Of a stretch of DNA of 64,000 nucleotides, positions 11,636-35,162 are shown in pieces. Where the stretch lies: the NCBI GenBank assembly GCA_963930775.1, contig OZ005699.1, positions 8,143,501 to 8,207,500 on the forward strand, in the 5' to 3' direction. The DNA comes from Cliona cf. orientalis. Its lineage: Eukaryota; Porifera; Demospongiae; Clionaida; Clionaidae. Every line of letters begins with the position of its first letter. The stretch's first letter is position 1. A program made the translations under genes and the position numbers. The notes beneath the pieces were generated by a model. The model made no database searches. It had not been told where the DNA came from and was given only the letters and a program-made list of their open reading frames with translations.

Positions 11636-14078
11636 GGAATTAGAGAAAATACCTTGATAGCTATAATACTAAGTAATAAAAGTAGCAACTGTACTGTAGG
11701 AAACTTATGAACTTTGAAGGATATGAGCCGGAAACATGGGAATGACTATTTCCCACACTGGACAAGGTAGCTATAAATTTGAAGACACCACTCCATTGAG
11801 ATAGCTAAAGTCTTCACCAATGCAAGAGAAGAATCTACAAAGAAAAAATCAGTGATGAATACCGTAAAGATCTTCATTCTATTTACGTTATTTATCACTC
11901 TCAGTTCTACCTTGGACCTGGAGAGTGAAGTTCAAATGATTAAAAGCACATTTCAAAACAACAAAACTATCAATGCTGAGCATATTTTACGCAATATTGC
12001 AAAGAGAGCTGTTTCTCCCAGTAAGTACGTGTCAATTGCGAAATGCATTTTACTATAACGTATATATGAACTATATACATGCAGGTTCATGTTTGTCAAA
12101 ATTGTATGTAATGGCATTCACGTCTAACCTGAAGTGGGCAAATTCAGATTCAAGTCACGAAATAGAGCTTCAATACAATGGAAAAACGCAAACCATGGCC
12201 TTATATGATAGACCTGGAGATGACTATTTGTCGAATAAAGGTGATCTTTGGGAACTGAGTCTCTCCGACTGTGTCAAACTTCCAGAGATACAAAGAGTAT
12301 CTATTGTTGAAGGCGGAAATGACGGATGGAACATTGGATCTATCGTGACTTTAGTGAGTGATTCTTTGAATGTTCAATTACTAACACGAGATTTTAACGT
12401 GAATCGGTGGATTGATGGAGATGGTGCCTCTTCTCATGAAAAATTTGATCTCTCACTTTCCCGTTCTGAAGTCAATACAGGTTAGATGTACATTAGCTAT
12501 ATATGTATCATGTACACATTTTTTGGCTTTCATTACATGCTTACATGTAAGTCCTCGATAAATTATTATGCTTTATCATGTTTCAGGTTCATGTCTGTCA
12601 AGGTTGTATGTCATGGCGTTTACATCTGATCTATCAGGGGCCAGTTCAGATACCAGTCACAGTATACAGCTTCAGTACAATGGAGCTGTTAAAACCATGG
12701 CTTTATATGATAGGCCTGGAGACGATTATATGTCAAACAAAGGTGATCTATGGGAACTGAGTCTCTCGGGCTGGCAGTGCATAAAAATCCGTGATTTGCA
12801 AAGGGTATCTATCATTGCAAATGGAAATGACGGATGGAACATTGAATCTATTGTGACTTTGGTTAGCGATTCTTCGAATATTCAAGTAGACTACTCACAC
12901 AAAATTTTGATGTGGACCGCTGGATTGATGGAGATGGACCTTCTTCTCATAGACAATTTGATCTCACGCTACCTGGTAAATATCACATCACACATTATTT
13001 CCCACGGCATGGAATCTCCTTGCAGTTTCTGCGCACTAATTAAATTTTGCTACATAGTAGCTAGCTAATTAAAATTTTGACCCATGCATGCTCTACAAAG
13101 TTATATAGAATAACTGATGTTATTCTGATGCATTTCTTGATGTGCAGTACTTGACTGCCAACAGCTTCCTCCCCTAGGCTCAAGAAAAAGAGAATGCAGG
13201 AGTCTGTTGACGACCTTTACCTACGCACCAGTTGTGTGCATGAGCAGAAAGCACATGGCTTGCAGTAGGCAGAGCTGATAGGCGTGGGCAATAAATATGC
13301 AGTATTTGAACCGACCCTTGCGCATGCGCGTGGGGTAATTATTATGTAGTCTGAATGCCCGGTGCATTAATTGGCAGGCCATGCACTCTTTTTTTTGCTA
13401 CCTTTGCAAAATTATTAAATCTGAATCTCTCTCTTCCACAGGACCTTGTCTATCAAAGCTCTATGTAATGGCATTCACGTCTAATCTTAAATGGGCAAAT
13501 TCAGATTCAAGTCACAAAATAGAGCTTCAATACTATGGAGGAAAGCAAACCATGGCCTTATATGATAGACCTGGAGATGACTATTTGTCAAACAAAGGAG
13601 ATCTTTGGGAACTGAGTCTCTCCGGCTGCATAAGACTTACTGAGTTACAAAGAGTGTCTATTGTTGAAAATGGAAACGATGGATGGAACATTGAATCTAT
13701 AGTGACTTTGGTAAGCGATCCTACAAATGAGATTCAAATGCTAACGCAAAACTTTCATGTAAACCGTTGGATCGATGGAAATGGAGATCCTTCTCATAGA
13801 CGCTTTGCTCTGACACTTTCACTCTCTAAAGTCAATGAAGGTTAGCATATACACATTGTAAGCTTGTGGATAATTATTACAATTGTAGATATTTTGAACC
13901 TAATTTTGATTTCACTCAGGTTCATGCCTGTCAAAGTTGTATGTCATGGCATTTACATCTGGTAAATCAGGGGCCAGTTCGGATACCAGTCACCGTATAC
14001 AACTTCAGTACAAAGGAGGTGTTAAAATCATGGATTTATATGACAGGCCTGGAGATGACTATATTACATCCCCAGTAG

Positions 14079-15291
14079 CAATTTACTTTTCTGTGGTTAT
14101 GAGGTAATTATGGTGTAATTATGATGAAACCTATGGTGTAATCTATGAGGTAATCTATGAGGTAATTATGAGAAAATTCAGGGCCTTAACGGAGCCTTTC
14201 TGAGACTTGAAAAGAAGTAAATACATAGAGTATCTAACGCATGTATCCAGCAAATACCTTAGAAGCTGTATCTTGCTCTCTCTGACAAGTGTGCCCGGTC
14301 GGACTTCGCTCTTTTCTTTGGCTTACGTAATCCCATAAAATATATATAGCATGCATGCTGCTATGCATTCTAATTCCGAGCGAAGCGAGGTCTCTACTCG
14401 GGCTCGAGAGTTGTTTCGTATGGCTTCTGGGCGTATCTTTCGCGTGCGTCTAAATTTTCTTTCTCACTCTCTTCGGCGACTCAGGCCACCTCGCCATGTA
14501 TTGCTGAGTCAAAAGCTGTGGCCTCCCTCAAGATGGTCATGCAAGGCCTACAAACTCTACCGTTCTGCTGGACTGTGCTTACCGGGCAAATCAATGTTCA
14601 CGCGGCCAAAAACGATCGCACCTTCTTGGCCCAAAGTTGTTTGTCCCGTCGCTGATGATAAAGATGTTGCTAGATGTGGCCTGTCAATTGGCCTGGTCTA
14701 CTCTTGGCTTTATTCTCCCAAGACTGACGACATAATGGAGCTCCTTTTGTTGCTAATACTTCAGCATAGACGATAGAAACCACTCCCTTATCACGTGATC
14801 TACATGTGCAGCATAAATTTAATTTACAGGCGCTAGGCCAAGGCGGGGGAACCCTAAAATAATACAATACAGGATATTGGTTGGCATAGTGGCTCGCTGA
14901 GCGAGGACTGCTACACAAAGTGTAACTCTAGTTATAACTGCCGAGAACGCTGTCCTCCCTGGCCTGGAGTTTGTCTCGGAAGCGCAATCGAGAGTTCGCT
15001 GAGTTTGTCTCTGAAGGCTCTGCCTGTCCTGTCTGGTGTTTACTGTGCTTTCTGAGTTGTCTCTGAAGCGTGGATCTGGACTCTGAGTTTTAATGCTGTG
15101 TGTCTCGCTACTGTGACGGTGGTTCTGTCCCATTTGGTGTTCTACAAGACTATCGGCTTGCTAATTTCTCATCCGGATCTGTACCATTTTAATACAAACT
15201 TGCTGTGTTATCATAGTTGGCAATTGCTTTGCCCCAGTCCAGCTCTTCTCTCCAATCCGATAGCTATCTTGGAGGCGGTGTGACACTCAAG
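14079..15291. other. 5' leader of the Helentron
   Basis: About 1.2 kb from the 5' terminus to the Rep-helicase ATG. The first 200 bp are homologous, inverted, to the small element at 35415-35987 and include repeated GAGGTAATTATG/GAGGTAATCTATG motifs. Plus ORF 14351-14776 is Arg/Ser-rich, has no recognisable domain and is not called. The promoter for the Rep gene presumably lies here. Confidence 0.5.
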
Positions 15292-18200
15292 ATGGTCTAC
15301 AAGCCCTGTCCTCAGTGTGGTAAGAGTAACCATCATAACAAGGTGAAGTGTGCTGAGTGTGGTGTGTGTTTGAAAGCTGGTAAACGTGGGAGACCGAAAA
15401 AGATAAGTGATGATAAAAAAAATTGCCCAGGTAGACCCTGCATACAAGTTAATGTACTGTGTCCATCCTGTGGACATTGTAATGATCTTTGCAGGATGAG
15501 CAAATGCTCTATTTGTGATGAAAGTTTAGTGGGTAAGGGAGGTAGACTGGAGGAAATGTCAACTGTACGTTGTCCCTCCTGTGGTCATGTGAATGAAGCT
15601 AAGAGAACCAGCTGTAGTGTGTGTGAGTGTGTGTTAATTGGTAATCCTGGTCGACCGGAGGTGAAATTAAGCACACATTGTCCCTCCTGTGGTCACATTA
15701 ATGAAGCTACGAGAGCTACCTGTACTGTGTGTGCATGTACTTTAATTGATAAGGGTGGTCGACCAGCGGTGAAATCAACCATACCATGTCCCTCCTGTAG
15801 CCACATAAATGAAGCAAAGAGAATCAGCTGTAGTGAGTGTGAGTGTGCTTTAATCAATAAAGTTGGTCGGCCAGAGGTAATGTCAGCCTTACCTTGCCCC
15901 GTATGTGATAAGGCCAATTGTGGTGACCATATAACTTGTAGTTCTTGTCGAGAAATGAATGATGCTGAAAGGCTTGTATGTGGTAATTGTAGTCAACCTC
16001 TTAAGCAACGTGTACTCAGAGGTAGACCTGTGGAAAGGAGGGAAATCTGTCAAAATTGTTTGCAACCCAATAGTTTTGCAACTACAGTATGTACAAGGTG
16101 TGGTGAACCACTAGCTATCAAAAGAAGCAGGAATAACAAGGCTACCAGTGCATCCTCTGATGTAAATGTGCTCTTTAACCCCTCAATTGAGCTGCCAAGT
16201 GAATGGGACACATCCCAAGGGAGTATAAATCTCAGTGAAGACTTATTAGCTAAGCTCAAAAAGAGGTGCATGCAGCAAAGAGAGTTTGACAAACAAGCCT
16301 TAGTTGATGGTATGTGTTACAACTGTGGACGTGTTTTGTGGTCCACCTCCTTGATCAGCCCTCCTAATGGGATGGATGCTGACAGTGCTCCAGCATCAGC
16401 ATACCTACAAGCTGTGCCTAATTGTAATATCAGCTTTGTAGCTAGTAATGAAGCAAGTTCTGATGAGAAGTGGTTTTGTTGCTCATACTGCAAAAAAGGA
16501 TGTGTTCCTATAGAGCAGCATGTTGGGGATATCTTCAATAAAGACGGTAGTGTGAAGCCAATTTCTGACTGGGATATGAAGAAACCTGACCCCATTTCGG
16601 CACTAACTAGCAGCTATGAGAGACAACAGGTCTCTCTTTGTAGGCTTTTTTCTAAAACTGTAAAAGATGCTGGGGTATCACAATATAAGCACATTCAAGG
16701 AGAGGTGAATTCAGTCAGAAAACTGGATAAACATTTCTATGGGTTGTTTGGTTTCCTGGCTTGCAAAAATGAAAGTATATATGAGCATAGCCCTAATCCC
16801 CAGAGTTCTTTAAGAATTCACAGAGCAATCAATTGGCTTCACTCTAATAATCATCTCTATAAGAGATTTTTTTCTGAGTATGAAACCCTGTTCAGATATG
16901 TCAAGCCAGAATTTATCAATCCTGCCCTTTTAGAGGATCAAAAGATACCTTTAAAAGACATTTTGGACCAGGAAGCAATTGGAATGGCCTTTCCTGTGGA
17001 CTCAAATTACTTTGATAAGTACCCCCTTGTTTACAATGCTAGTAGTGAACCTGGGACTAGTGATGTGGCAGGTAGGCAACATCCAAGACCTCAATGCCAA
17101 ACAAACCTCCATGACATAGTATACACTAAATATGGGGAAATGTTTCTTGATGTCAAAACATTTCCCCATCTCCATCCCTGGGGTTTTGGAGGGTGGCATT
17201 ATGACTGTGAAATGTCTTTCAGTGCACATATCAAAATGCGCTTATTTGACATCCGTGGATGGTTTGCTTCTGATTATCTCTATCCATTTTTCAAGTTTGA
17301 TTTTATGTCCAAAAGTCGTTTACGTATGTATGCCAGCAAGCGTTGTGTTCAAATTGGCAACCTCACTGAGGTACTGAATGCCTCAAAAGCAAAAGACAAT
17401 GACCCATATTCAAAGTATGGAACTGAAGTTCCTCGTAGTATTCCTGGGTCTGCTCAGTATTGGAAGTCTTTTGGACTGGATTTAGTAGCCATGGTAGAGC
17501 AGAGAGGCTTGCCTGATTTTTTTTTGACATTAAGTGCTCATGATGGATGGCCACAAGTCCAAGCTACACTCCGTGAAGGGTGGGGAGCTGTAGCATTAGA
17601 CACTGACACTGAAGACTTAGCTGCCAAGGTGAGTGATCGGCAGCCAGTGGGGTGGCACCCAGAGGTGTCAGTATTGGCAGCAGAGAAAAGGTATAGGTGG
17701 CTTATCAACTTGCTCAAAAGTGACGACGGACCCCTTGGACAAATTCAAGAGCTGGTAGTAAAAAAAGAATACCAAAAACGAGGAGCCGTCCACTGGCACA
17801 TGCTTGTGTGGGTGAAGCCTGGTACAGCACCTCCCCATGCAGTGATGGCAGAGGTCCCCAGAGGACCAGACACCTCCGACAAGGTTGCCGCTTATGTTAG
17901 AAAGATAGTGGAAACAATGATGCTGCATAAAGTATGTAATCCAAACCGTTGTCTGAAGGGCATCTATGGCAAACCATTGACAAAGTGCAAATATGGCTTC
18001 CCATACTCAACTCCCCAGCCTTGCAGGGAGCTTGATGAAGACCACATTAGGTATCTGGACATGCGAAGGCTCACTGAGGATGCTGTTGTGGTCCAATATA
18101 ACCCTGAGATTGCTATATTGTGGGGAGCCCATCACAATGTCCAGCATGTCAGTAAACATGGGTTTGAACAATATTTGTCAAAGTATATAAGTAAAACTGA

Positions 18201-21200
18201 ACCTAGTTGTAAAATTGATCTGCCAGAAAATTGCTCTGAACCACAAAGGTATCTTCGAACACGTGTGATTGGTGCGATTGAAGCTTTAGATGTGCTCATG
18301 GGATTTGAACAGCACCATTCCACTCGAGTTGTTGTATATCTTCCCACAGAGTTGAAGCCAAGCCGTAAAACGCTCAAGCCAAAAAGGGATCTCGAGAGCT
18401 TGCCTGATGATTCTGAAAATGTTTATTGTGAGACCAAACTAGAAAAGTACTTACAAAGACCACCACAACTTGACAGGCTTACATACCCAGAGTTCTTTAG
18501 GTGGTGGGATTTGGCCAGCTCTGCACAGCAGCAGAAAGCCACTGATGCTGCTGCTGAAGGGGGTACATACAGTGTGGCTCGTCAGGGTGCTGACGACTTT
18601 GCATCTTTTATGGATGCGTCAAGATGTTTGCAGTCTGCAGAGAGTTCATTATCTCAGCTTCTTAATGGTAGTACTTACAGGTCAGATGATTTTATAGCTC
18701 TGGTGAAGTCCATGAGGTACCATGATGTACCCAAAGTTGTGATTGATGCTGTGATCAAACATTTTGAGGGAGAAGGTATTGATGTTGGCAACACTAATGT
18801 ACACTTAGCATTGTCTGAACACCAGTATGAGAGAGCTGAGAGTTTATTAGCTGAGATTGATTTGTGTGACGAAGAGCTGTTCAAAAGGTTGTCATCTTAT
18901 CATTGGCTTATGCCCACCAAACCCAGTGCAGATCTTGTTTCTGTATTGTCGAGGTACCCTCCTGGTACCACACTAGCAGATAAGGATGGCAGGTACTGGG
19001 TAAGGCGATCCAGAATGACCATTACAAGGCACAGATTCATATCCTCTATAGGCGATGACCAGGAGAAGTATTATGAGCAGAAATTTCTATTGAATGTTCC
19101 AATTACTGACCAATCTGAAGTAGTTCAAAATCCCCCAACATCGTGGATTGAGCACTGTGTGCAATTGAACATGTTTGACTCACACATTGATGCTCTTGCT
19201 TGTATGCAATCTGGGATTTCACGTGGTTTTAGTGTGGAGGCTCTGAGATCATTAGCTCAGCTATATATTGACAATGGTTTCCTTACACATGCTGAGGCAG
19301 ATACTTTTCTGTCTGACATACCTGTACCTGGAGAGAGAGATGAACCTCAGTCCACTGTGGCTGACTACATGCTAGGTGACAGTAGTGGTCAGTTTGATGG
19401 TTTAACCACCAATACACCCACCACTGATCTTAATTCAATTATTAGTACATTTACAGACTCTCAAAGGAGGGCATACAGGTGGATTGAAAGTCAGCTCACA
19501 GCTGGTAAACAGATCACAGTTGCCATAGTTGGACCTGCAGGTACTGGAAAATCCTATCTCCTGCGTGGTCTCATAGAGCTTCTAAAGTCCAACCACCTAG
19601 TAGTTATGAAGCTTGCTCCTAGTGGTGTTGCAGCACACCTCATTGGTGGCACTACAATTCACAATTTTTTTGGATTGGATATTGACTGTAACAGCAGTCT
19701 TGAAAATGGTACTATCCAGGCTGCAAAGCTTCGTAAAACAGATGTGCTTGTCATTGATGAGTTCTCTATGTTGGATTTTTTCCTTTTTCGAACAGCAGAG
19801 GGGCTTTGTAGAAAGTTTGCAAAAAAGAACAGTTCATGCCACCCCTGGGGTGGCAGGCATGTGATCCTCTTGGGTGACCCAGCACAGTTGCCTGCCATTG
19901 GCCACAGAGACATCTTTGGAACCAAGTTATGGCGCACCTTTTCTATTCTGATCCTGAGAGAGGTCAAACGTGCCACTGATCCCATTCTGAGTAGTATTTT
20001 ATTAAAAGTGAGAATGGGAGTGTGTGATACAGAGGTAATGCAAGTGCTAAAAAGTCGTGTGCAACCATGTAATATCAATGACATTGAACTTGATAGGACA
20101 GTTGTCATTTGTTCCACACGTGCTGAGTGTGATGTGATCAATGAGGAATGTCTTGAGAGGCTACATGGCAACCCTGTTAGCTATGAAGCTGTAGACACTG
20201 ATCACAATGGTCACCCACTGAGAGAGGCCGACAATAGGCGCTTGCAACACTATAGAGAGAAACTACCTGACTGTCTCACCCTCAAGATAGGGGCAAGAGT
20301 AATCCTCCGTAGGAACATCAGTATTGGCTCTGGTTGGGTGAATGGTACACTGGCTGTAGTGGTGTCAATGCACTCTAATTGTATTGTTGTGCAGAAGCTA
20401 ACCAACACTGCACACAGGTATCCTGTGCCCAGGTTCAAACAGAAAATAGAGATACAGGGTGCCTCATACAGTATAATGAGACAACAGTTTCCTCTGCAGT
20501 TAGCCTATGGAGTCACAGTACACAGGGTCCAGGGGTGCACAGTGCAAAAAGCAATAGTTTGTCTCAATAACAAGTTTTTTGAGTCTGGTCAGGCATATGT
20601 TGCTCTCAGTAGAGTTAGAAAGCTTGAAGATTTAGTACTCTGGGACTTTTGTACTACAGCCATTAATTTATTACACTTCTACAAGCAACTGCTGGCTTGG
20701 TGTGAGTACATGGACCAAATTAACCCCAATCCACCAAAGGATGTTGTAGCTTACCCAGAGAGATGTGATGATATCAGTAACCAGCCACTTCCTGATTCCA
20801 CAACATGTTTAGAGGAGGCCAGTATTCCCTTTAGTGACACTTCCAAGAAATCCAAGCCATTAAAATCAGTTGACCAAAAAAGACCATTAAGCAAACCACT
20901 TCCTCCACCTGATCCTAAAAGTCCTAAATTAGATCAGACCACTCCCACACAACAAATGAATGTAACTGGCAGTCCATCTTTACAACCTTCTAACTCTAGT
21001 AGTGCCTTGATTGTTTTGGATACCCTTTGTTGCACCATGTTGAATGAATTATCTTCACATAGTAGGAATTTAGAATATATAGTTGCATACTTTGAAATCC
21101 GTTCAGCAATACTTGATCAGGTGGTACAATACTTAAATTCACTTCCCATTCCATATGCTAACACTCTACCCAACCTGCAAGTAGACAGATATGTGCAACA

Positions 21201-21816
21201 GGAATGCCACCCACTTTTTCTGCAAACATTTAAGCCTATAAAAACCACAGGTGACGGCAACTGTATGTACAATGCTTTGTCACTGGCATTTTGTGGTACA
21301 GAACATCTCTCAATAGTCATTAGGCTACTTACTACATATGCTCTGGTCAAGCACAGGACTGCCATGATTGATGCACTATCCCATATATACTTCGATGGAA
21401 ACCATGAACAACATACCCAAGCATTAACTGACACTATGCACAAGGCAATCCATTTGGGTGTGTGGGGAACAGATCTGCACTTATTCTCACTCAGTCTTCT
21501 TCTAAACAGACCTATTTTCTCATACAACACATTCTATATAATTAGGCAATCAGTGAGAATCTTAAACCTTCCTGATACAGCAGACCCTCACCACTTAGCA
21601 CAAAGGTTCTTATCACGAGATCAAGGCACCAGGGGACACTTTTTGTTCTGCAGTGATGTGCTCCGAGTGTCCCTTTCCTCTGGAAGTATTACCTCACTTC
21701 CTCTTCCACCACTGTGTCTATTTAACATTTTAAATCAACACTGGGTTGCACTGTTAATGTTATCACCACTGGTAGCTGCCCATGTGCCAATACCAACAAC
21801 AAGAACGATAGCTTAA
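15292..21816 (+). CDS. Helentron Rep-helicase with zinc-ribbon/AT-hook array and OTU domain
   Basis: An intronless ORF. The first ATG is at 15292 and gives 2174 residues; 25 open codons upstream lack an ATG. (1) Residues 6-290: about seven CxxC...CxxC zinc ribbons at a 36-residue period (CPSCGHxNEA), alternating with GRP motifs such as KRGRPKK (31-37) and RGRP, resembling minimal AT-hooks. (2) Rep HUH nuclease: H834-W-H836 and paired tyrosines Y961/Y965 in YLSKYISK. (3) SF1/Pif1-like helicase: Walker A GPAGTGKS 1414-1421, D1489-E1490, GDPAQLP 1528-1534 and a QAYVALSRVR motif from 1767. (4) OTU-type cysteine protease: GDGNC with D1988 and C1991, and H2150-W. All catalytic residues looked for are present, so the protein may be active. 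It should nick, unwind and transfer one strand of the element. The OTU role is unknown. No separate endonuclease domain was seen. Confidence 0.95.
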   Translation: MVYKPCPQCGKSNHHNKVKCAECGVCLKAGKRGRPKKISDDKKNCPGRPCIQVNVLCPSCGHCNDLCRMSKCSICDESLVGKGGRLEEMSTVRCPSCGHVNEAKRTSCSVCECVLIGNPGRPEVKLSTHCPSCGHINEATRATCTVCACTLIDKGGRPAVKSTIPCPSCSHINEAKRISCSECECALINKVGRPEVMSALPCPVCDKANCGDHITCSSCREMNDAERLVCGNCSQPLKQRVLRGRPVERREICQNCLQPNSFATTVCTRCGEPLAIKRSRNNKATSASSDVNVLFNPSIELPSEWDTSQGSINLSEDLLAKLKKRCMQQREFDKQALVDGMCYNCGRVLWSTSLISPPNGMDADSAPASAYLQAVPNCNISFVASNEASSDEKWFCCSYCKKGCVPIEQHVGDIFNKDGSVKPISDWDMKKPDPISALTSSYERQQVSLCRLFSKTVKDAGVSQYKHIQGEVNSVRKLDKHFYGLFGFLACKNESIYEHSPNPQSSLRIHRAINWLHSNNHLYKRFFSEYETLFRYVKPEFINPALLEDQKIPLKDILDQEAIGMAFPVDSNYFDKYPLVYNASSEPGTSDVAGRQHPRPQCQTNLHDIVYTKYGEMFLDVKTFPHLHPWGFGGWHYDCEMSFSAHIKMRLFDIRGWFASDYLYPFFKFDFMSKSRLRMYASKRCVQIGNLTEVLNASKAKDNDPYSKYGTEVPRSIPGSAQYWKSFGLDLVAMVEQRGLPDFFLTLSAHDGWPQVQATLREGWGAVALDTDTEDLAAKVSDRQPVGWHPEVSVLAAEKRYRWLINLLKSDDGPLGQIQELVVKKEYQKRGAVHWHMLVWVKPGTAPPHAVMAEVPRGPDTSDKVAAYVRKIVETMMLHKVCNPNRCLKGIYGKPLTKCKYGFPYSTPQPCRELDEDHIRYLDMRRLTEDAVVVQYNPEIAILWGAHHNVQHVSKHGFEQYLSKYISKTEPSCKIDLPENCSEPQRYLRTRVIGAIEALDVLMGFEQHHSTRVVVYLPTELKPSRKTLKPKRDLESLPDDSENVYCETKLEKYLQRPPQLDRLTYPEFFRWWDLASSAQQQKATDAAAEGGTYSVARQGADDFASFMDASRCLQSAESSLSQLLNGSTYRSDDFIALVKSMRYHDVPKVVIDAVIKHFEGEGIDVGNTNVHLALSEHQYERAESLLAEIDLCDEELFKRLSSYHWLMPTKPSADLVSVLSRYPPGTTLADKDGRYWVRRSRMTITRHRFISSIGDDQEKYYEQKFLLNVPITDQSEVVQNPPTSWIEHCVQLNMFDSHIDALACMQSGISRGFSVEALRSLAQLYIDNGFLTHAEADTFLSDIPVPGERDEPQSTVADYMLGDSSGQFDGLTTNTPTTDLNSIISTFTDSQRRAYRWIESQLTAGKQITVAIVGPAGTGKSYLLRGLIELLKSNHLVVMKLAPSGVAAHLIGGTTIHNFFGLDIDCNSSLENGTIQAAKLRKTDVLVIDEFSMLDFFLFRTAEGLCRKFAKKNSSCHPWGGRHVILLGDPAQLPAIGHRDIFGTKLWRTFSILILREVKRATDPILSSILLKVRMGVCDTEVMQVLKSRVQPCNINDIELDRTVVICSTRAECDVINEECLERLHGNPVSYEAVDTDHNGHPLREADNRRLQHYREKLPDCLTLKIGARVILRRNISIGSGWVNGTLAVVVSMHSNCIVVQKLTNTAHRYPVPRFKQKIEIQGASYSIMRQQFPLQLAYGVTVHRVQGCTVQKAIVCLNNKFFESGQAYVALSRVRKLEDLVLWDFCTTAINLLHFYKQLLAWCEYMDQINPNPPKDVVAYPERCDDISNQPLPDSTTCLEEASIPFSDTSKKSKPLKSVDQKRPLSKPLPPPDPKSPKLDQTTPTQQMNVTGSPSLQPSNSSSALIVLDTLCCTMLNELSSHSRNLEYIVAYFEIRSAILDQVVQYLNSLPIPYANTLPNLQVDRYVQQECHPLFLQTFKPIKTTGDGNCMYNALSLAFCGTEHLSIVIRLLTTYALVKHRTAMIDALSHIYFDGNHEQHTQALTDTMHKAIHLGVWGTDLHLFSLSLLLNRPIFSYNTFYIIRQSVRILNLPDTADPHHLAQRFLSRDQGTRGHFLFCSDVLRVSLSSGSITSLPLPPLCLFNILNQHWVALLMLSPLVAAHVPIPTTRTIA

Positions 21817-21940
21817 CTTTCACATTCATATACACCAATAGCACATGTTCATGCACACACATCACTATAGATATGTACATATATACACATAGACCACTAT
21901 AATAATAATATAGAAGATTGGTCTCACCTTACAGTTGTCT

Positions 21941-21941
<1 letters not shown>

Positions 21942-22009
<68 letters not shown>
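21942..22009. repeat. (CA)n microsatellite
   Basis: An uninterrupted CA repeat of about 68 bp, 125 bp after the Rep-helicase stop codon. Confidence 0.95.
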
Positions 22010-22010
<1 letters not shown>

Positions 22011-22266
22011 CTGTTGATCAGTGGTAAAATTGGAGACCTTTTAAGTGCATAATATTATATTCACTAAAGATTGTGTAATAATATTATTATAATAATATTA
22101 TGACATGTACAGGTAATAATATTATGTGTATGTATTATATGCATGTGGTTAATTTGCAGCCAATTGCACACATTTTAGATAGTTTGGGCCCCCATGCACC
22201 TCAACGTTCACGTCGTGGGGCCTGAGAGCACATTGTTTTTGTAACAGAGATTATTCTCTTATGTAA

Positions 22267-22353
22267 TACCGTGTTTATTCTAATAGAACACAACTTATAA
22301 TTTTAGTTTTCGCGATTTTCTGGTACACTATGACAATTAGCATAAACACGGTA
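22267..22353. mobile_element. MITE, ACCGTGTTTAT family, short copy
   Basis: An 87-bp near-palindromic element with ends TACCGTGTTTATTCTAATAG and ATTAGCATAAACACGGTA. It shares termini with 5795-5962 and is nested in the Helentron. Confidence 0.65.
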
Positions 22354-25300
22354 ATTAACCAATGTGTTGCTGATGGAGGTGCATAATTATTGATTCAAAG
22401 TGAGAAGAGAGAGATGCATGTGATTTATGTATTACCTACTGAAATATTCTATAGAGTTGTTATCTTGGTACAGGGTCATCAACATACTAGTTGGTATGAC
22501 AATACATATCAGATTCTTGATTATGAAGGACTTAGGTGTAGTAGGAAATGCAACCATTATTCAGCTCAGAAGGGCTTGAGCTCAGTCTCCATATATCCAG
22601 ATCCACGGCCCCATAAAATCATTATATCAACAGTTTTTGATTATTATAATAATTATACACAATAATTGTGCTATACCGTAGTTAATCGAATACAACGTAT
22701 GCATGATCCAATTATCCTGAAAGAAAGAACCGAGGCTTCTTATGTAACCTTACGTACCCTACCCACACCCATTTTGGTGATGCCACACCTGAACCTATAC
22801 TATGAAACTTAATATGGCGAAATTATGATGATGACTATGGGGTACTCATTCCTGATTATTCCAATTGTAATCCCATTAACAATGCTCCAGGGAACTGCAT
22901 GATCAATACAAGACCTCATTCAAGATGCCAGTCAGAAGGATCTGGATCCAGGCCCTCTTCTCCATGCAGTGGATGCAATTGATTCTGATCAGGATGATAA
23001 CTAGTCCTAGTCTGAACTTCATGTTCTGTTGTTATTTTTTAATTATGCACACACACAGGCGTGCACACGTACACACACACCATTGCATGTGCACATGCTC
23101 ATACTATGGATGTATTATGATGGATAGCTCAATGCACAAATTCATTAATTTTTTTATGATTTCTTATTACATTACATACCAGTACCCTCTACAATTTTCC
23201 AATGAGAAATAATATTATACAATGACCTCAATCTGCTTGCACTGAGGTCACTCATGATCATGATCATCAGTCATGCTGGTGGAAAAAGTACATGGTGATT
23301 GATGATTCTTGAATTCTAGGCAGCTCTATAAGGGCATCATATTGTAAATAGTTCAAGTTGTTTGTCCTCATAATTAGCCTACCCTACTATCACCCATGCC
23401 TCAGTACTATAGTAATTGGCCTATAAAACTTTGGTTGCTAAGCAACAGCCAAAAAAAATTTTAAGGCAGGATTTAAAGCAGTAAAGGACCCAAGAGGGCA
23501 TATAGCCCAAGGATAAGGGTGGTTGGTATAGGTTGTCTTTGTTGTCTTTCATTTTACACCTGTGCATACTATACTACACAATGTCATCTCAGCTGCAAAC
23601 CACCTTTACAGTACTAGTTCTGCTTTAGCTACATGTACATAGCTGTAGCCCCAAAAAATCCCCAAGGCTAGGTCTTCCCACCAAAAACATTTAACTAATA
23701 TAAACCACTACATCATTTCCTAATGTACTAAGTCCCTCCCAAAACCAAGTCAACCCAATATTATCAACTCACACCACACTACCTACTGCTACACTGCATG
23801 CATGGTTGAATGCACCTTATAGTCTGAAGGATACATGGTTAATTTAGCTACACAATATACTAGCCCCAAGAGTATATACAATGCTAACCTACTCTTGATA
23901 TAATAATAATATAAACACACATGCACAGCACCCTGCAGCAGTAGTTAAAAGGATCATAGAAGTCAAACATAATTTCAAATTGCTGTTTCCAAATCACTCA
24001 ATTAAGTACGGTTCATTCAGTCTGCTAACTACACTTAATTAGTCTAGGTACTTTCAGTTACTGACCTAGGCGGAACCTCACTTTGGAAGAAGGACTGTTT
24101 CACAGCGATGAACATGAATAATCTGCATGATAAGAAAAAGTGCATGAAAGGATCAGCTGGCTATATAACTTCAAGGGGTAGCTAAATTAAACCACTAGCT
24201 ACTGAACAGTTAAACGTAGCTACAGAGATCATATTCAGTACCACATAGCTACATGTATATATAAATTATTATGTATACTATCAGCATTTCCTACCTATAA
24301 CCTGCAGCAGCAAACTAAGTTACTTGGTAAGAAAACTGTTGCAGTCATGATGCATACAGCATCCCTTGAACCCTGGCATGGCCAAGTTTGTCTCAAGGAG
24401 AAAAAAACAACTTGAACTTAGACTACAGAGCATGTGTTTAAGCTACCTGTGACTGATTAGCTACAAACCACTGTCTAATATGAATTTTGCCATAGGCACA
24501 TAGCAGGGTACTAAAATTAAATTACTAGGGGGGGGGGGGGCAAAGCCCCAAATCACTCAGAGTGCACAGCCAGACTCTCTGCCAGGGCCACTAGTGGCTA
24601 GCACAGTGGATCCCCAGTCTTCTGTCAGCTTGAAAGCCAGCCATAATCTCAGTATAGCTAGGTTCTGGCAAGTAGTTATTTACATGGTCGATCCAACACA
24701 ATGCATGCCAGTCAACAATGTCAAATTAATATTACTGACCTGTGCTTTAAATAGAGTCACATAGACACTGCATCATGATCATATCATGTGAGCTAACTTC
24801 CTGGTCATTGAATTTTACCCCAAGGTAAGCTACCATGTACAATTATATATGTACTGTGGATTTCAGCTCACAAGGAACATTCAGTTTTGCAAAATTTAAA
24901 AGAGTATCAAAATTGCACCTAGGTAAACTGTCCGAGTCTACAACAAACCACACCAAGGCAAATCATACCAGTATAGCTAGGTGTTGTGGTATGTAGCTAC
25001 TTTTTCTTTTAATTTGCAAATTGTCAAGTGTTCCAAGTGAGCTGCAATTAAAGCACAGTACACCGATACTTATCATAAACTTTTATTAAAACTTGCCAGT
25101 ACTTTGAGGGCCTATGAAGGTATAGCCAACATTTTCAGTGCTAAATCAGTGCACTGTCAGCATGCATAGTTCAGCTGGCTACATACACTCAGGATATGAT
25201 TGTAGTAGCTATGTATGCCAGTCACCATACAAGTCAATGATGGCTTCCATTCAAAGTGCTACTGGGATAGCTAGGTTTGTAAGCCTAAATTTAAGTTCCC

Positions 25301-26172
25301 CAATTATGGCCAGACATGCCACAGTCAGGATTTACAACCTTGGCTCAGGCTTGCACTGAGCCCTGTCAATATAATATAGTCACTGAAACCTATCATCATT
25401 AATGGTACAGCTTATAAGTGAAGGTGACAGTCTGTTCAAAAGTGTATAGGCATACTAATCTGGTACCATACTTATACACTTCATGTGCAGCTTTACTACC
25501 AGATCAAGGTTTCAAAACGCTAATGAAACTTGCATAGTTAGCAATGCCCATCTAGAACTTTATTATACATAGCAAGCTATGTATGTGGTATGACTAATAA
25601 TTAGGTTGGCCAAGACAGCTAAACAAATCCATTGTCTCTTATAATAATATGCAATGCTACAACAAAACAGCCGTCAGTGAAAGTAATATAGCCCCACCCA
25701 TTGAATTCTTTAAATTTAATGACCTTGTTTCTACTCTAGTAATACTAGACCAAAGCTCAGCCATGTACGTATATGTTCGGCCATTTGGAATCATTTTCTG
25801 GAATGTATACCAAACAAAATTTAATAACTACCTAAGCATATTAATCACTTCTGAGACTCATGTTTTAGGAGTTTTGTATACTTAAAAATCTGTATCAACA
25901 AATTAATCACGGATCAATAATATTATGGACTGTGGACGTTTTAATACTAGCATGGCTTTCTATGTACATTGTATACCTAGGTAAGTTATGCAGAAAGGTA
26001 GTCCAGAGAGGCACCTGGCTATGTCACTATATCAACTGAAAGCCTATGATGTGCAGCTTAACTGAATTAATTACTTAACACTGGAGAGCCACCACCTATT
26101 TACTTTTCCACTAGACAAAAGCACAGTACCAACCACATACTATATCACATCTACATGACATTGTACACATGC

Positions 26173-26530
26173 AGTCTCATCCCCAGACCCCATCTCCAAG
26201 GAGGAGAAGGGTCTAGTGAAGGCCGAGTTCTTGGGCCCTGGCACTAAGGGAATTTCTATAATAATATTATGCCAATGAGCTCTGGCTCAGTCACATGCAT
26301 GGTCTCATGGCACATACACTTGCTATATATGTGCATAAGCTATTCAATTTCACTGCCCAATCAGATTCAACATTTACTTTCCTACCACATGCATGCAAAT
26401 GCAGCCCTAGACCAAAGTTTTGCATGGTCTTGTCAGCCAATGTACCGTACATGCAATGAGAACTGAACATTCAGCCCAAGTTCTCTAGACCCTTCACCCT
26501 CCTTGAGGGTGGAGGTCTGTGGATGAGACT
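26173..26530. mobile_element. MITE, CTCATCCCCAGACC family
   Basis: The left arm AGTCTCATCCCCAGACCCCA is matched by the inverse right arm ending GTCTGTGGATGAGACT. The arms extend about 55 bp to GGGCCC/GGCCC-like inner ends. A better-preserved relative is at 57428-57768. It is nested in the Helentron and supplies the stop codon met when the neighbouring RGG exon is read through. Confidence 0.7.
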
Positions 26531-26635
26531 ACTGCACATACTCAATAACCTGTCTGCAATTAAATATTTTGAGTGACCCTGCCTATATGCACCATAGCTT
26601 CTACACCAATGAATATTAAATTTTAGCCAACTTAC

Positions 26636-27813
26636 TACTGATGAGGGATAATCATAAGGGGTGCTCCTGCCACGGCCACGGCCACGGCCACGACCACGAC
26701 CACGGATATGGCCACGACCACGCCCTCCTCCTCTGCCACGACTGCCACCTGGTCGACCCCCACGTCCCCTTTGTACTCCTCGTGTTCCTCGACCAATAAA
26801 TCCCCTTCCTAAATAAAGAGTTGGCGTTGGATGTGGCAATAAGGCTCGTCCCCTTCCAGGAAATCTTGGACCCAGATGAACAAATTCACTGTTGACATCA
26901 GCAGACCTACTACCACCTGCTCCAAGGTCGACGTCACTTGATATAGACTCAACACGTGATGCAGAGCTTGTAGCAACAGGATTTGAGACTCCTGTATCAC
27001 TATCATCTCCAACCATGGTAGACAACAAGCCAGATGAGCCAGCTGCAGCTGCACTATTAACAGCTACTGGCATAGCAGCTCCATTACTTGCTGTGAATTT
27101 AATGAGAGATCAAAGTCACACCATGCATGTTAATTATGATTTATTCACATAATACCACATCCTAACCACAGCTATAAAAGCAAATTTGGTGAGAAGCTAT
27201 ATTGACACCTTATTAAAGGAATGGTATCTATATGGATGAACGACTCCAAATTTTCACGCTAGCATGACAGGGTTTGGGTTTCGGGGACCTATTAATATTT
27301 TCGCGAGTCGTTCTTCCATATACATCCAAGGAATAACATGAGTTACTATTGCCGCTACTTTGTGAAATCAAACCATCAGGTATCTTCCATGGAATCGCTA
27401 TGTAGCTAACTACACTACAATGTCATGTCAATGCTGCCAAAGTCAACAAGACCTAATATTATTCTGATATTATTATAATAATGATCTAGAATAATATTGA
27501 ACCATTGTGATACCTACATCTTTCAGCGGGGAGTGCCTCTGAGTCAGTGCTTTCCCTGGTAGCAGCAGCATCATCATGGGCAGCATCATCATAATAATAT
27601 GCACCTTCCTGAACCGGTAGCTGCTGCTCATCGTTGTCAGAATCCAAGAGCTCTTCTCCTGATTCATACTCCATAGGCTCTGCATTTCGTATAAATCAGT
27701 TACATTAATAGGAGACTATACTATAATTATGGACTAGACTTACCCCTCTCAGACGCTGAATCGTTGGACTCGGCGTTGTTGCCATGGACACCATCAGTGT
27801 AGCTGGACGACAT
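26636..27813 (-). CDS. RGG-box protein fragment, probable captured gene in the Helentron
   Basis: Three minus-strand exons join in frame: 27744-27813 (ATG at 27813), 27518-27679 and 26636-27090, with consensus GT-AG borders (GTAAGT after 27744 and 26636). The first two encode an acidic Ser/Asp/Ala-rich leader (ESGEELLDSDNDEQQ). The third is Ala/Ser-rich, then runs into repeated GRGRG/RGG units, an RNA-binding type low-complexity tract, before YDYPSSV. Reading past 26636 enters a MITE, so the strong donor there is preferred and the real 3' exons are missing or unrecognised. It runs opposite to the Rep gene inside the transposon, so it is likely host sequence picked up by the element. Identity unknown. 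Confidence 0.55.
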
Positions 27814-28284
27814 CTTGAGAAGTTGAGGAGGTAGCTATAGCTCTGCCTAGTAAAATTTCGCGTTCACCTGGCTCGTGACTGGTCTGAGCTGGTATAGTAG
27901 AGATTCAGAATACAGCTACACACGTCGTAAGAGATGAACTCACCCAGCACGAGTAAAAGCCGAGTCAAATTAATACTTCCGTAGCGCAGACTATAAGCTT
28001 ATGCAGGCATAATAATTACTGTGCACGCACGTGGTAAACATTAAAATTTTTTTGTCGACAATAATAAATATGTCATGTCAAGACAAAATCAACACAATGT
28101 TATAGTAGAGTATACAGATCTCTATATAATTTATAAATGGAATGATAATCAAGTGGCAAATTTTATATATAAACCTGACTTGCCAAAAAGTCTGCAAATT
28201 TTAAATCAGCATGGCTTTAAATAAAGCTAAAGCAAGATGTTCGTCGAGCCAGTACTCAGTTTATTGCAAGGATCATGAGATAGA

Positions 28285-28584
28285 TCAATTGCGGCCATCC
28301 AACTGATTGTCATTGTCACCATTCATCGCAGCGCTAGCAGCGATGGCCTCCCACTCCTCCTCCTCGAGTTGCCAGTCATCGTACTCAGGGGCTGCAGAGT
28401 CTACCGTCGCTGCTTGTGCCTCGGCCGCACCTATTAATTTTTTTTTTAAGTATCAGAACTTAATAAAGTAAATAAGTTGTGTGCACATTACTATTAGTAC
28501 CATTTTCTTTGACTTCAGATTCATCAGCGCTAGCCGCAGCAGCATCCCGGTCGATAGTAACACTCGCTGCCTCTCTCTCAGCCA
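28285..28584 (-). CDS. Acidic two-exon gene fragment in the Helentron
   Basis: Exons 28501-28584 and 28285-28430 (TGA at 28285-28287) join at phase 1. They encode an acidic Ala-rich peptide with WQLEEEEWEAIAAS and a C-terminal NGDNDNQLDGRN. A possible first ATG at 28763, about 60 bp below a TGCGCATGCCC motif (28824), does not connect in frame by an obvious donor, so the 5' end is unresolved. Together with 26636-27813 it forms a second minus-strand, promoter-plus-exon block inside the transposon. Function unknown; capture is inferred. Confidence 0.35.
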
Positions 28585-28763
28585 CTGCAAGGGAGAAACC
28601 GATAGCTCATCTGATTCATCGATACGGATTCAGCAATTTCTGAATACATGGCTATATGCGTGTAATTTCTTACTTGCTTTTAGTGGTAACCCAGGCTCGA
28701 TCGATCAGCGTTCTTACACTTCTACAGCACCTCGGCTGGTAGCTTTGTCTCCGGTTTTGACAT

Positions 28764-30445
28764 CTATGCTCTTATTAAATGAGCGGCCAGGCGCGCGGAC
28801 GCCAGATGGCGCTCACAGTATTATGCGCATGCCCACACAAGCAGTATAATATTAATTTTATTATCGTAACCCAATTCTCCATCACTAAATCTTATGATCA
28901 ACAACTTGCTTATTCAATAAGACTTCTTATATTCCACTTTCTCCATATTTCTCTTTGAACTATATATGCAATAGCTACATCATGTACGTGTACATCTCTC
29001 TGATCATGATCAGCTACTACAAGAAGTTTCAATGCCATGATTATTACTGAGGACAGCCATAGGTAGCTAGCTTGCAACTTAAGACTATAACTGCCACCCA
29101 CATTACTGATGGACTAAAGCCCTTCTATCGATATACAGTACATCATCAAAATCTTTATAATCTAAGTACACAATCACCGGCGCATGCGCAATTGCATAAG
29201 ATGTTAATGTACAATGTGCAAGCCTCTATACTATAGGGTAAAGGTCGTGAGCAAAATACATAGTATAATGGCCGCTCGGGTAAGTAGTTCTCCACAATCG
29301 GTTATTTACTGTCATAAATTGACTCTATATAAATAATTATTTTATGCTCCAACTCTGGTGAGATCACTACAGTATACCCCATCAGTTCAGTTAATATAGG
29401 AAAGCTCTCCCAATATTAAATTTTATATAAATCTGCAGAAACTAATTAGACATGAAATTACATCAGCATGTGCATTCTATTCTTGAGCCCATTATATTAC
29501 ACGTGTGACGACCTTTGCCATAAATTATAGAGACAAGGGTGCATGAGACAGAACTTTACAAGTATAATAAAATTAATTGTGTAGTCATACCAAGGGCTTA
29601 TAGACCCTAGAACCCCTTGATTATATACTTTAATCCCATGCAAAATTCTTGCATAGATACATAACTTTTGCAGTTCCTCAAGAGCTATAGTATATTATAC
29701 TATTATTATTATTATCTTATTGCATCCCCAGTAACAAAAATTCTGTGGTTATGAGGTAATTATGATGTATTTTAAACTTTCTTATGCAGTGCAGATAAAT
29801 CAATCATAATTATAATAAGGAACAGCTCCTGTGGTTCACATCATTAAAAGCACTTCATATCTTTAATATAATCATATGTTCAATAATATTATTTCAAGGT
29901 ATATATATAATATTTAATATTATAATAATTATACCTATATACATGTTTTAATAATAATTTATACTATACTGTAACATTCATATATACCACATTTCAGTCG
30001 ATTTATTGTGGAAAAATCATTGCCAATGGATGACCTTAAAACAGTTACACTTAATATATATCGCTAGCGCAAAAAAATTAATGTTCAACGACCAATGCAT
30101 TTCATAATAAATTTTAATGTTTCTGCTTCTGAATCATTTCAGGCTTCACCTTTCAGATTCCTGAATTTCCACTTGCCTGGCTCAGTGATCCCCCAGGCTA
30201 AGTCTGACTCAATGGAATAATTATTATATATATATAGCAGCACATAGGGTGCACCACGTATAAAATCTTAAGCTATAGCCACAGATATGTTAGCCTGCAT
30301 TGTATAGAATATGGACTATTATAATACCATACAACGTCATTAATAATATTATAGACATACAAAAATCAATAAAAATCTTATAAAATTCTTTACCACTCTG
30401 AGTCTCAAATGCGGTCAATTAATGTCATGCAAGTTAGAGGTATAT
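28764..30445. other. Helentron interior near the 3' end
   Basis: No supported ORF. It includes a GGCGCATGCGCA palindrome at 29179-29190 with ATGGCCGCTCGG followed by a GTAAGT donor at 29268-29285, a possible orphan first exon. It also holds a second copy of the element's own 5' end at 29721-29767. Confidence 0.45.
29721..29767 (+). repeat. Internal copy of the Helentron 5' terminus
   Basis: TGCATCCCCAGTAACAAAAA, followed by TTCTGTGGTTATGAGG and GTAATTATGATG, matches the true 5' end at 14066 in the same orientation. It lies 1.1 kb before the 3' end. It may mark a nested non-autonomous copy sharing the outer 3' terminus. Confidence 0.65.
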
Positions 30446-30507
30446 TATGGCAGGCATCTGTCTTGTATTGGCCCGAAGGGCCAATACAAGACAGTGGCCT
30501 GCCATAT
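30446..30507. repeat. Long near-perfect hairpin with GAA loop
   Basis: The 17-bp arms CTGTCTTGTATTGGCCC (30458-30474) and their exact inverse (30478-30494) flank a GAA loop. After a 2-base mismatch the stem continues with GGCAGGC/GCCTGCC and weaker pairing out to about 30425/30525. It lies about 350 bp from the Helentron 3' end. A separate perfect 20-bp palindrome, GTTACCTACTAGTAGGTAAC, is at 30658-30677. Confidence 0.85.
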
Positions 30508-31140
30508 AACTGACTTGTTAGATGTTGACATAGGAATTTAATTAGTACCTATTCGAGCATGTTGCCCACAGTATCACTGTGTACACTAACATGAACCTAT
30601 TTAACACTCTAATATTGATGTTCGTTTGTACATGTATTGGAGAATATTCTGTCACTAGTTACCTACTAGTAGGTAACATCTAACAAATATTATTATAATT
30701 ATGCATTCGTGAGTTCACATGCATGCATGCTATATACTAGTTATCTAGTAATACTAACCATTACTAGCTATGATTGATGATGATGTTGATAGCACAATTC
30801 CTGATCACCTTATAACATATGACCCATTTACTATTCACCTACTGGGGATGTGGTCACGTTTTCATGTCAAACAAAGGTGATCTATGGGAACTGAGTCTCT
30901 CGGGCTGCATAACAATCCGTGATTTGCAAAGGGTATCTATCATTGAAAATGGAAATGATGGATGGAACATTGAATCTATTGTGACCTTGGTTAGTGATTC
31001 TTCGAATATTCAACTGCTAACACAAGATTTTGATATAAACTGTTGGATTGATGGAAATGGACCTACGTCTCACAAACAACTTGATCTGACATTACCTGGT
31101 AAATTCACAATTAATTAAAAGTCGTGCATGTATCATAATC

Positions 31141-34221: not shown

Positions 34222-35162
34222 GTGTAACAATTACTCCCAAAAAGTGCAACGGTATGGAGGGATTATGTAACCTTCGAATAGACCAAGTTACATTCCCAGG
34301 AGCACATAACGCTGGAGCTGGATTTAATGGAGGACTGTACTATAGCAATGGCTTACCTGCACTACAGTGTGCTTACAGAAATGTCGATAGTAACTTCTAT
34401 GTTATGTTAAAGCGTGGTATACGCTTTTTTGATATTGACACTTGCGTCCGGAATGGCCATGTGGAATCCTGTCATGGAACTGCCTATGCTGGGCCTTTGA
34501 GTAAAGCTTTTGACCAGATTGATAACTACATGAAATGTCACAAAAATGAAGTCATAATCCTCCACTTTAATCGTGACGTTGAGGGAGATAGGCCAACAGT
34601 AGCCAAAAAGCTAGTTACCGAGCTAGAGAAACGCTGGAATCCGGACAAAGCTAACAATCAATTGAAAATGCATATGAGCACTTACCCAAAATGGCCTACT
34701 CTCAGGCAAGCAATAGAGACTAAACAGAGAATATTTATTTTCATGGACAAAAACTTGGCACAGCACATCTCAAAGTCATATATTTATGACAGAAATTCCT
34801 TCTTCAGATCTACTTATGAGAGTGGGATTATTGTTACTGCTATTATTGGTTGTGATGGAATTATTGGTCCAGCGAGCAGAAAATGTAAACAAAATAGTGG
34901 ATTCATTGAGCTTGCAGGATTTGGAACCATTAGCGCTACGTCTGTATTCCTAGGCCCATCATGTGTCAAGGGTATGGCCAAGCTGTGCTCGCGATCACTT
35001 AAAAGAGCTGCAGAAGTGTGTTACAAACAAAGAGAGAAGAATAAAAAAACAGTTAATGTACTGTTGGTGGACTATCCAGTTAGTGAATATTATCCAAAAC
35101 AGAGTGTTGTTGATATAGCTAAGTTTATGAATGAAAAGAATATCAAGACGTTTTCGGGATGA
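34222..35162 (+). CDS. PI-PLC X-domain terminal exon of the PLAT gene
   Basis: Acceptor TTGTTGCAG precedes 34222. The exon enters at phase 1, matching every upstream PLAT exon, and reads 313 residues to TGA 35160-35162. It encodes a phosphatidylinositol-specific phospholipase C X-type TIM-barrel domain. FPGAHNAG holds the first catalytic His (codon 34305), RGIRFFDID supplies the acidic/Arg residues, and ESCHGT holds the second His (codon 34473). VIILHFNRD and FIFMDKN follow, and LLVDYPVSEY is near the end. There is no Y or C2 domain, so it resembles bacterial, oomycete and plant secreted PI-PLC-like phosphodiesterases rather than metazoan signalling PLCs. With the upstream signal peptide it should act outside the cell on GPI or PI head groups. 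This exon is intact and can be spliced to exon 4 (13840) in frame. Confidence 0.82.

What the first reader, a model, noticed from the sequence alone, without database searches (positions are those of the whole stretch)
14057..30870. A 16.8-kb Helentron inserted in a coding exon, with a readable empty site
The left flank ends in GACTATAT and the right flank resumes at ATGTCAAACAAAGG. Homologous exon 3 reads straight through at this point. Removing the insert leaves a 378-nt exon, a multiple of three with phase-1 ends, like its paralogues. This fixes both element ends to within 2 bp without any search. It confirms the asymmetric inverted repeats (13-bp match at the 5' end, 12 bp inside the 3' end). 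The element is large, apparently intact, and inside a gene.
Basis: partly seen in the sequence, partly recalled or inferred. Interest (0 to 1): 0.88.

Follow-up and report, generated by a model that had tools for sequence, protein, structure and literature searches.

The report
Giant rolling-circle transposon splits an exon
A 16.8-kb jumping element of the Helitron superfamily sits inside a protein-coding exon of an unnamed eukaryote, and comparison with its other copies indicates that it is a patchwork of related elements with an unusual mix of known Helitron features.

Summary
The element spans 14065-30863 (16,799 bp) with AT on both sides. Joining the flanks with one AT gives a 378-nt open exon. 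Three neighbouring homologous exons read through the site, one with the same TATATGTC. Copy 2 on C1 shares both ends. Of 967 3' ends of this type in the genome, 950 are followed by AT.

'Helentron' fits only partly. The intact ORF is Rep-PIF1 helicase-OTU, under purifying selection. It has no AP-endonuclease match and no TT target. No 3' hairpin is supported, and the Rep motif reads RGA(V/I)HWH. The 13-bp asymmetric inverted repeat resembles Helitron2; the A^T target resembles canonical Helitrons and the Phytophthora proto-Helentron.

It is also composite: a second 5' terminus at 29721 makes 29721-30863 a 1.1-kb relative that supplies the 3' end. Copy 2 (18.5 kb) has a different middle, ending in a decayed internal 3' terminus exactly at an AT that is uninterrupted in the window (28889-28890). 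Its divergence from the window jumps from 1.3% to 8.4% inside the ORF. Nested insertion followed by recombination explains this best (inferred). New variant of a known kind.

The parts
14065..30863 (+). Whole element, 16,799 bp (16,801 bp if read as T...A inserted between A and T)
   Evidence: Exon join and copy comparison
14063..14064 (+). AT at the 5' junction (target A^T or one copy of a 2-bp duplication)
30864..30865 (+). AT at the 3' junction; 950 of 967 3' ends of this type in the genome are followed by AT
14066..14078 (+). 5' arm of the perfect 13-bp asymmetric inverted repeat (ACATCCCCAGTAG)
30839..30851 (+). 3' arm of the inverted repeat (CTACTGGGGATGT), followed by GGTCACGTTTTC to the 3' end
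15292..21816 (+). Intact ORF from the first ATG, 2174 aa: N-terminal Cys-rich repeats, Helitron_like_N Rep, PIF1 helicase, OTU-like cysteine protease (the listed ORF starts at a TTG at 15217, 2199 aa)
14376..14926 (+). About 550 bp absent from copy 2 at the same place (6 of 7 bases repeated at the two edges)
22974..28888 (+). Middle segment shared in pieces with copy 3 (C1:33721067-33727918) but not with copy 2; 22974 is where similarity to copy 3 begins
26471..27073 (-). Open frame with an RGG-rich stretch (200 aa from ATG), no Pfam match up to E = 1; the stretch searched (26595-27073) is also open in copy 3
28889..28890 (+). Uninterrupted AT at which copy 2 carries a decayed internal 3' terminus
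29721..30863 (+). Internal 1.1-kb relative: second 5' terminus TGCATCCCCAGTAACAAA preceded by AT, sharing the 3' end of the whole element
11855..12020 (+). Host gene, exon with signal-peptide-like start (E0)
12085..12480 (+). Host repeat exon E1, 396 nt, reads through the site
12587..12975 (+). Host repeat exon E2, closest empty-site paralogue (TATATGTCAAAC); 389 nt, shifts the frame if included
13442..13840 (+). Host repeat exon E3, 399 nt, reads through the site
13920..14064 (+). Left part of the split exon E4
30866..31098 (+). Right part of the split exon E4
34222..35162 (+). Last host exon in my model, weak PI-PLC-X match (E = 0.00059, 19.9 bits against a Pfam cut-off of 23.1)

Best explanation
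This is a mobile element of the Helitron superfamily that moves by rolling-circle replication and has landed once, at an AT, in a coding exon. Its Rep-helicase protein would nick at the 5' end (TTACATCCCCAGTAG), peel off one strand and stop at the 3' end (CTACTGGGGATGT..GTTTTC), and the copy would join into an AT; these enzymatic steps are inferred from the family and not shown here. The mobile unit is a composite: a Rep-helicase 5' half, a long middle, and a smaller relative (29721-30863) whose 3' end now ends the whole unit. It has moved as one unit, because copy 2 on C1 carries the same two outer ends in a different place (shown). Copy 2 is best read as the same outer element into which a related element inserted at the AT at 28889; homologous recombination between the two Rep-helicase genes then removed what lay between, leaving a hybrid gene, a foreign middle and a decayed internal 3' end (inferred, about 0.6). 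In the host gene the insertion breaks one repeat exon; skipping that symmetric exon would keep the rest in frame (sequence shown, splicing untested).
For: Exon join gives 378 nt open in frame and three paralogous exons read through. Helitron_like_N E = 1.4e-17, PIF1 E = 1.4e-26, OTU E = 3.4e-7, each above its cut-off. HUH, two-tyrosine and Walker-type motifs are in the sequence (motif names recalled). dN/dS 0.21, 0.14 and 0.16 against L041 (1413 codons), L040 (1879) and L044 (1204). Copy 2 shares both outer ends with different flanks. Second internal 5' terminus at 29721. 950 of 967 3' ends followed by AT; 11 of 11 distinct 5' ends and 10 of 10 distinct 3' ends matched in the fetched loci also have AT. 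Window-copy 2 divergence over 14927-21836 is 68/5386 up to about 20320 and 127/1512 after it, likelihood gain 86.6 against a maximum of 10.5 in 500 permutations. The same cut shows no such jump against L040 (17.7% and 17.3%) or L044 (19.4% and 17.8%). Copy 2 has about the last 66 bp of a family 3' end, with most of its inverted repeat lost, ending exactly where window similarity resumes at the AT of 28889. From there window and copy 2 agree at 1747 of 1795 aligned bases, 97.3% (89-93% if gaps count).
Against: No reference Helitron proteins were available, so no phylogeny was built. Only one copy with both outer ends besides the window was read whole. Copy 3 was read only at its two sides, where it had no Rep-helicase match, scored 21 of 505 candidates. 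Segment 22711-23012 matches C17 and C6 at 72% across 22974, so which copy is rearranged at 22974 is open. The stretch of copy 2 upstream of the decayed 3' end also resembles the 5' part of the small family over 30 bp, so that 3' end could belong to a small nested element and not to a full one. L041 also diverges somewhat more after 20320 (5.4% before, 7.3% after). 17 of 967 3' ends are not followed by AT. Copy 2's own Rep-helicase frame is broken by stops in the reading (L046).
Confidence: 0.8

Rival explanations
1. A true Helentron in the published sense.
For: 12-15 bp sub-terminal inverted repeats near the 5' end and more numerous non-autonomous partners are Helentron features (PMC4067079, Results parts 1 and 2); OTU proteases are reported in Helentrons (PMC4067079 passages).
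Against: No AP-endonuclease match, AT and not TT at the 3' ends, Rep motif-2 residues A-V/I in 19 of 19 readable loci of 20, no significant 3' hairpin, 3' repeat 12 nt from the end, where the mite families of PMC4067079 have 38-60.
Confidence: 0.12
2. The mosaic of copy 2 and the window arose by template switching between copies during rolling-circle synthesis, not by nested insertion and homologous recombination.
For: Identity between the two falls from the 5' end towards the middle: 99.4% at the 5' end, about 98.7% in the first part of the ORF, about 92% in its last part, about 70-80% after it, then none.
Against: It does not predict a decayed 3' terminus lying exactly at an AT that is uninterrupted in the window, nor the return to 97.3% identity after it.
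Confidence: 0.25
3. Two separate insertions stand side by side in the exon: a large element that lost its own 3' end, and an independent small one at 29721-30863.
For: 29721-30863 has its own 5' terminus preceded by AT.
Against: Copy 2 carries the same outer 5' end and the same 3' module at another place with other flanks, so the pair has moved together; the exon resumes directly after 30863 and its AT.
Confidence: 0.05
4. A cut-and-paste DNA transposon with a 2-bp AT duplication.
For: AT on both sides; sequence alone cannot tell this from insertion between A and T.
Against: The only long ORF of the element with a transposition-type domain is Rep-helicase; the inverted repeats are asymmetric.
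Confidence: 0.03

Closest known systems
Helitron2 (PMC3627910, passages seen) and Fusarium FoHeli (PMC5148889, abstract and sections 6, 10, 16 seen)
   Same: Short asymmetric terminal inverted repeats, 5' arm 0-2 bp from the end; 5' T; Rep-helicase; some copies with several 5' termini and one 3' terminus, explained there by self-insertion; FoHeli1/2 insert at an AT-containing site.
   Different: Here the 3' arm is 12 nt from the end (about 20-30 in Helitron2), no supported 5' or 3' hairpin, A^T target and not TTTT, and an OTU domain.
Proto-Helentron of Phytophthora infestans (PMC4067079, Results parts 1 and 2 read)
   Same: No endonuclease, insertion between A and T, 5' end TT, large (about 14 kb).
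   Different: It ends in CTAG and has Helentron residues in Rep; here the end is GTTTTC(A), there is an inverted repeat pair and the Rep motif has A-V/I.
Canonical Helitron / Helraiser (PMC4778049, passages seen)
   Same: A^T target, Rep-helicase; capture by running past the 3' end to a later terminator is documented there.
   Different: No 5' TC, no CTRR 3' end, no significant 3' hairpin, inverted repeats present.
Helentron / DINE-1 (PMC4067079, Results parts 1 and 2, section 17 and passages read)
   Same: Sub-terminal inverted repeats, abundant non-autonomous partners, OTU domain known in the group.
   Different: No endonuclease match, no TT target, other Rep residues.
Maize Helitrons with multiple termini (PMC3288121, passages seen)
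   Same: Internal 3' termini without the intact end motif, in elements thought to come from nested Helitrons.
   Different: There the ends are CTAG-type; here recombination inside the Rep-helicase gene is also indicated.

Membership tests
Helitron superfamily | Rep (HUH, two tyrosines) fused to a PIF1-type helicase | tested here: met
Helitron superfamily | Precise insertion without target duplication | tested here: inconclusive
   One AT in the empty-site paralogue, AT at both ends; A^T insertion and AT duplication look alike
Helentron | C-terminal AP endonuclease | tested here: not met
   No such Pfam match up to E = 1
Helentron | TT target | tested here: not met
   950 of 967 3' ends followed by AT
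Helentron | Rep motif 2 with S after RG | tested here: not met
   RGA(V/I)HWH in 19 of 19 loci with a readable motif, out of 20 loci given, the window's own included; L057 starts after the motif
Helentron | 12-15 bp sub-terminal inverted repeats | tested here: met
   13 bp, 1 nt from the 5' end and 12 nt from the 3' end; in the mite families of PMC4067079 the 3' distance is 38-60
Helentron | 3' stem loop | tested here: not met
   z = 0.19 for the last 100 nt and -0.92 for the last 50 nt
[quoted passage not shown]
Helitron2 | 3' arm about 20-30 bp from the 3' end | tested here: not met
   12 nt; published distance
Helitron2 | 5' hairpin formed with the 5' arm | tested here: not met
   z = 0.61 for 14065-14125
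Helitron2 | Rep phylogeny within the Helitron2 clade | not testable with these tools
   No reference proteins could be fetched
Canonical Helitron | 5' TC and 3' CTRR | tested here: not met
   Ends are T(T)ACATCC and GTTTTC(A)
Canonical Helitron | Insertion between A and T | tested here: met
   the same data would also fit an AT duplication
Proto-Helentron | No endonuclease, 5' TT, A^T insertion | tested here: met
Proto-Helentron | 3' CTAG and Helentron Rep residues | tested here: not met

The most novel reading that the evidence does not exclude
The window holds a lineage of rolling-circle transposons separate from the described subgroups. It combines a Helitron2-type asymmetric inverted repeat with the A^T target of canonical Helitrons, carries Rep-helicase-OTU without endonuclease, has left about a thousand ends in this genome, some of them in short copies, and builds giant elements by nesting relatives and recombining inside the Rep-helicase gene so that the whole mosaic moves as one unit.
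Probability: 0.35. Interest if true: 0.55.

Novelty: new variant of a known kind. Interest (0 to 1): 0.42.

Why it matters
The subgroups of rolling-circle transposons are separated by their ends, target and accessory domains. Here those features are re-mixed in a family with about a thousand ends in one genome, which makes the end and target rules testable in one place. The pair of large copies also indicates, at base resolution, how nested relatives can fuse into one larger mobile unit. The exon insertion gives a natural test of whether a symmetric exon lets a gene survive a 17-kb insertion.

Tried and rejected
Rejected: the coordinates 14057 and 30870 as element ends; they lie in the flanks. 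My own first reading of the 3' end as 30865 was off by two bases and was corrected; the AT at copy 2's junction was first noted as 28888 and corrected to 28889-28890. Rejected: copy 3 as an untouched donor locus; C17 and C6 match at 72% across 22974, so copy 3 may be the shortened one. Rejected: an inverted shared second gene in window and copy 2; the supporting match (26002-26045) is a dispersed repeat also present in L015 and L023. Rejected: faster evolution of the OTU end as cause of the identity drop; L040 and L044 show none, L041 a small one.

Led nowhere: the one viral-contig scan found no match to the six peptide patterns of the ORF. Pfam names nothing in the repeat exon E1 or the RGG frame; of five other long ORFs of the window three had no match at E 0.01, one had a match below its cut-off and one a PMP repeat. 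A first script comparing the two middles failed on a BLAST setting and was redone. The organism was not identified.
Full report
What is there. The window lies at G000:C11:8143501-8207500 of an unnamed 217-Mb genome in 149 contigs. The left exon piece ends ..GACTATAT at 14064 and the right piece starts GTCAAACAAAGG at 30866, with AT at 30864-30865. The element is 14065-30863, 16,799 bp. With one AT kept, the exon is 378 nt and open in the frame of its neighbours. Three homologous exons in the same gene read through the site; the closest, E2, has the same TATATGTCAAACAAAGG. A genome search with the left exon piece found 6 places: itself, these three exons (89%, 73%, 73%) and two at 71% on C1; none is an empty allele.

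The ends are real. Copy 2 (C1:5305232-5323707, minus strand, 18,476 bp) has the same 5' end and the same 3' end in other flanks; copy 3 (C1:33717853) has the same 3' end. The 5' pattern TATCTCCCCAGTAGCAATTTACTT gave 973 places with up to 2 mismatches and none for the pattern read backwards. The 3' pattern ACTGGGGANNTGGTCANGNNTTC gave 967 places, 950 of them followed by AT and 17 not. Six short copies were read with both ends: L003, L005-L008 and one in the window at 35415-35986; they are 565-573 bp long as counted, and L004 had no 3' match in its stretch. How many of the ~970 ends belong to such short copies was not counted. In the fetched loci, 11 of 11 distinct 5' ends matched are preceded by AT and 10 of 10 distinct 3' ends are followed by AT; rows that repeat the window's own ends are counted once.

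The protein. The ORF is open from 15217 to 21816; the first ATG gives 2174 aa from 15292. Pfam finds Helitron_like_N, PIF1 and OTU above their cut-offs and no AP endonuclease up to E = 1. The genome search with the protein gave 32 matches, 21 of 505 candidates being scored. dN/dS is 0.21 against L041, 0.14 against L040 and 0.16 against L044, so the protein has been kept by selection. Of the 20 loci cut out for the protein, the window's own included, 19 have a readable Rep motif 2, and all 19 read RGA(V/I)HWH. The DGNC and HW of the OTU domain are in the sequence; that these are its catalytic residues is recalled.

The composite. A second 5' terminus, AT then TGCATCCCCAGTAACAAA, lies at 29719 onwards, so 29721-30863 is a 1.1-kb relative that shares the 3' end. 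Copy 2 matches the window in pieces over 14065-22498, lacking 14376-14926, and over 28889-30863, but not between 22.5 and 28.9 kb, where it has about 8.8 kb of other sequence. Copy 3 matches the window in pieces from 22974 to the 3' end at 89-95%, with one piece of about 195 bp inverted and some insertions. It was not among the 32 Rep-helicase matches, and the 1,000 bases around its 22974 edge hold no 5' terminus. The stretch 28889-29720 has long matches only in these three places.

The recombination reading. Window and copy 2 differ at 68 of 5386 sites up to about 20320 and at 127 of 1512 sites after it (14927-21836 compared). A single switch point improves the likelihood by 86.6, against at most 10.5 in 500 permutations. 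The same cut gives 17.7% and 17.3% against L040, 19.4% and 17.8% against L044, and 5.4% and 7.3% against L041, so a faster right part does not explain it. After the ORF identity falls to about 70-80% and then vanishes. It returns from 28889: 1747 of 1795 aligned bases agree, 97.3%, or 89-93% if gaps count. In this 3' module copy 3 agrees less with the window (94.1%) and with copy 2 (95.6%). At the junction copy 2 has ..GTGGTCAAGGGTTC, the end of a family 3' terminus that has lost most of its inverted repeat, then AT and CTTATGATCAAC. The window reads CACTAA-AT-CTTATGATCAAC without a break, the AT being 28889-28890. This decayed end matches L003-L008 and the window's copy at 35415-35986, seven of seven, over about 66 bp at 76-81%. 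The simplest path is an element inserted at this AT and a later recombination between the two Rep-helicase genes. This path is inferred. A 30-bp match of copy 2 to the 5' part of the short family just upstream leaves open that a small element, not a full one, was nested there.

The host gene. Exons E0, E1, E3, E4 and the last exon at 34222 join to an open frame of 759 codons. Leaving out E4 gives 633 codons and stays in frame. Reading from E4 into the element stops after 14 further codons. Including E2 shifts the frame and stops after 325 codons, so E2 may be skipped or the gene may be decaying. The last exon has a weak PI-PLC-X match, below Pfam's cut-off, and the repeat exon tested (E1) has none. 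The exon model is mine, from splice-like sites and frames; whether the gene is expressed is unknown.

Compared with what is known. In print, Helentrons have an AP endonuclease, a TT target and Rep residues RG-S; the Phytophthora proto-Helentron lacks the endonuclease, starts TT, ends CTAG and inserts between A and T (PMC4067079, Results parts 1-2 read). Helitron2 has 8-15 bp asymmetric repeats and two hairpins, with insertion after TTTT in the Chlamydomonas families (PMC3627910, passages). FoHelis have such repeats, AT-containing targets in two subgroups, and extra 5' termini explained by self-insertion (PMC5148889, sections 6, 10, 16). Maize has Helitrons with internal 3' termini lacking the intact end motif, attributed to nesting (PMC3288121, passages). 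[quoted passage not shown] The parts are therefore known, while the combination here fits none of the four subgroup descriptions fully. Seven paper searches were answered; I saw no closer element in their listings, most listed papers were not opened, and they cover only open PMC papers.

Verdict. The finding is real, and the name Helentron is better replaced by 'Helitron-like element with asymmetric inverted repeats and an A^T target'. The exon insertion is a single ordinary event. The mosaic build of the large copies and the mixed set of features are the interesting part.

Noticed in passing
window 35415-35986 (-): A 572-bp short copy of the same family, flanked by AT on both sides, lies just after the last host exon.
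   Followed up: partly
L002, oriented as copy 2, positions about 490-1450: Head-to-tail relatives share single AT junctions. One (from about 1001) has a different 14-bp inverted repeat (ACATCCCGAGTCCC at 1003, GGGACTCGGGATGT at 1422) but the same layout and ..TTC then AT, so the layout is wider than one family.
   Followed up: partly
window 26471-27073 (-): RGG-rich open frame with no Pfam match; the stretch 26595-27073 is open in copy 3 at 93% identity, with a third, 26-residue match on C17.
   Followed up: partly
window 30446-30506 and 30426-30703: A long hairpin inside a dispersed repeat that matches all 27 loci L012-L038; copy 2 lacks 30446-30503.
   Followed up: no
window 27227-27327 and 24838-25061: Short dispersed repeats in the middle segment; most of the second (24868-25029) is absent from copy 3, so it was gained or lost after the split.
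   Followed up: no
window 21942-22009: (CA)34 just after the ORF, near where identity to copy 2 falls.
   Followed up: no
window 12587-12975: Repeat exon E2 is 389 nt and carries a 5-nt difference that shifts the frame, so the host gene may use alternative exons or be decaying.
   Followed up: partly
[quoted passage not shown]
   Followed up: no
window 63225-63989 (-): Frame with a Chlamydia PMP-type repeat match (E = 1.5e-7) and a weak beta-helix match.
   Followed up: no
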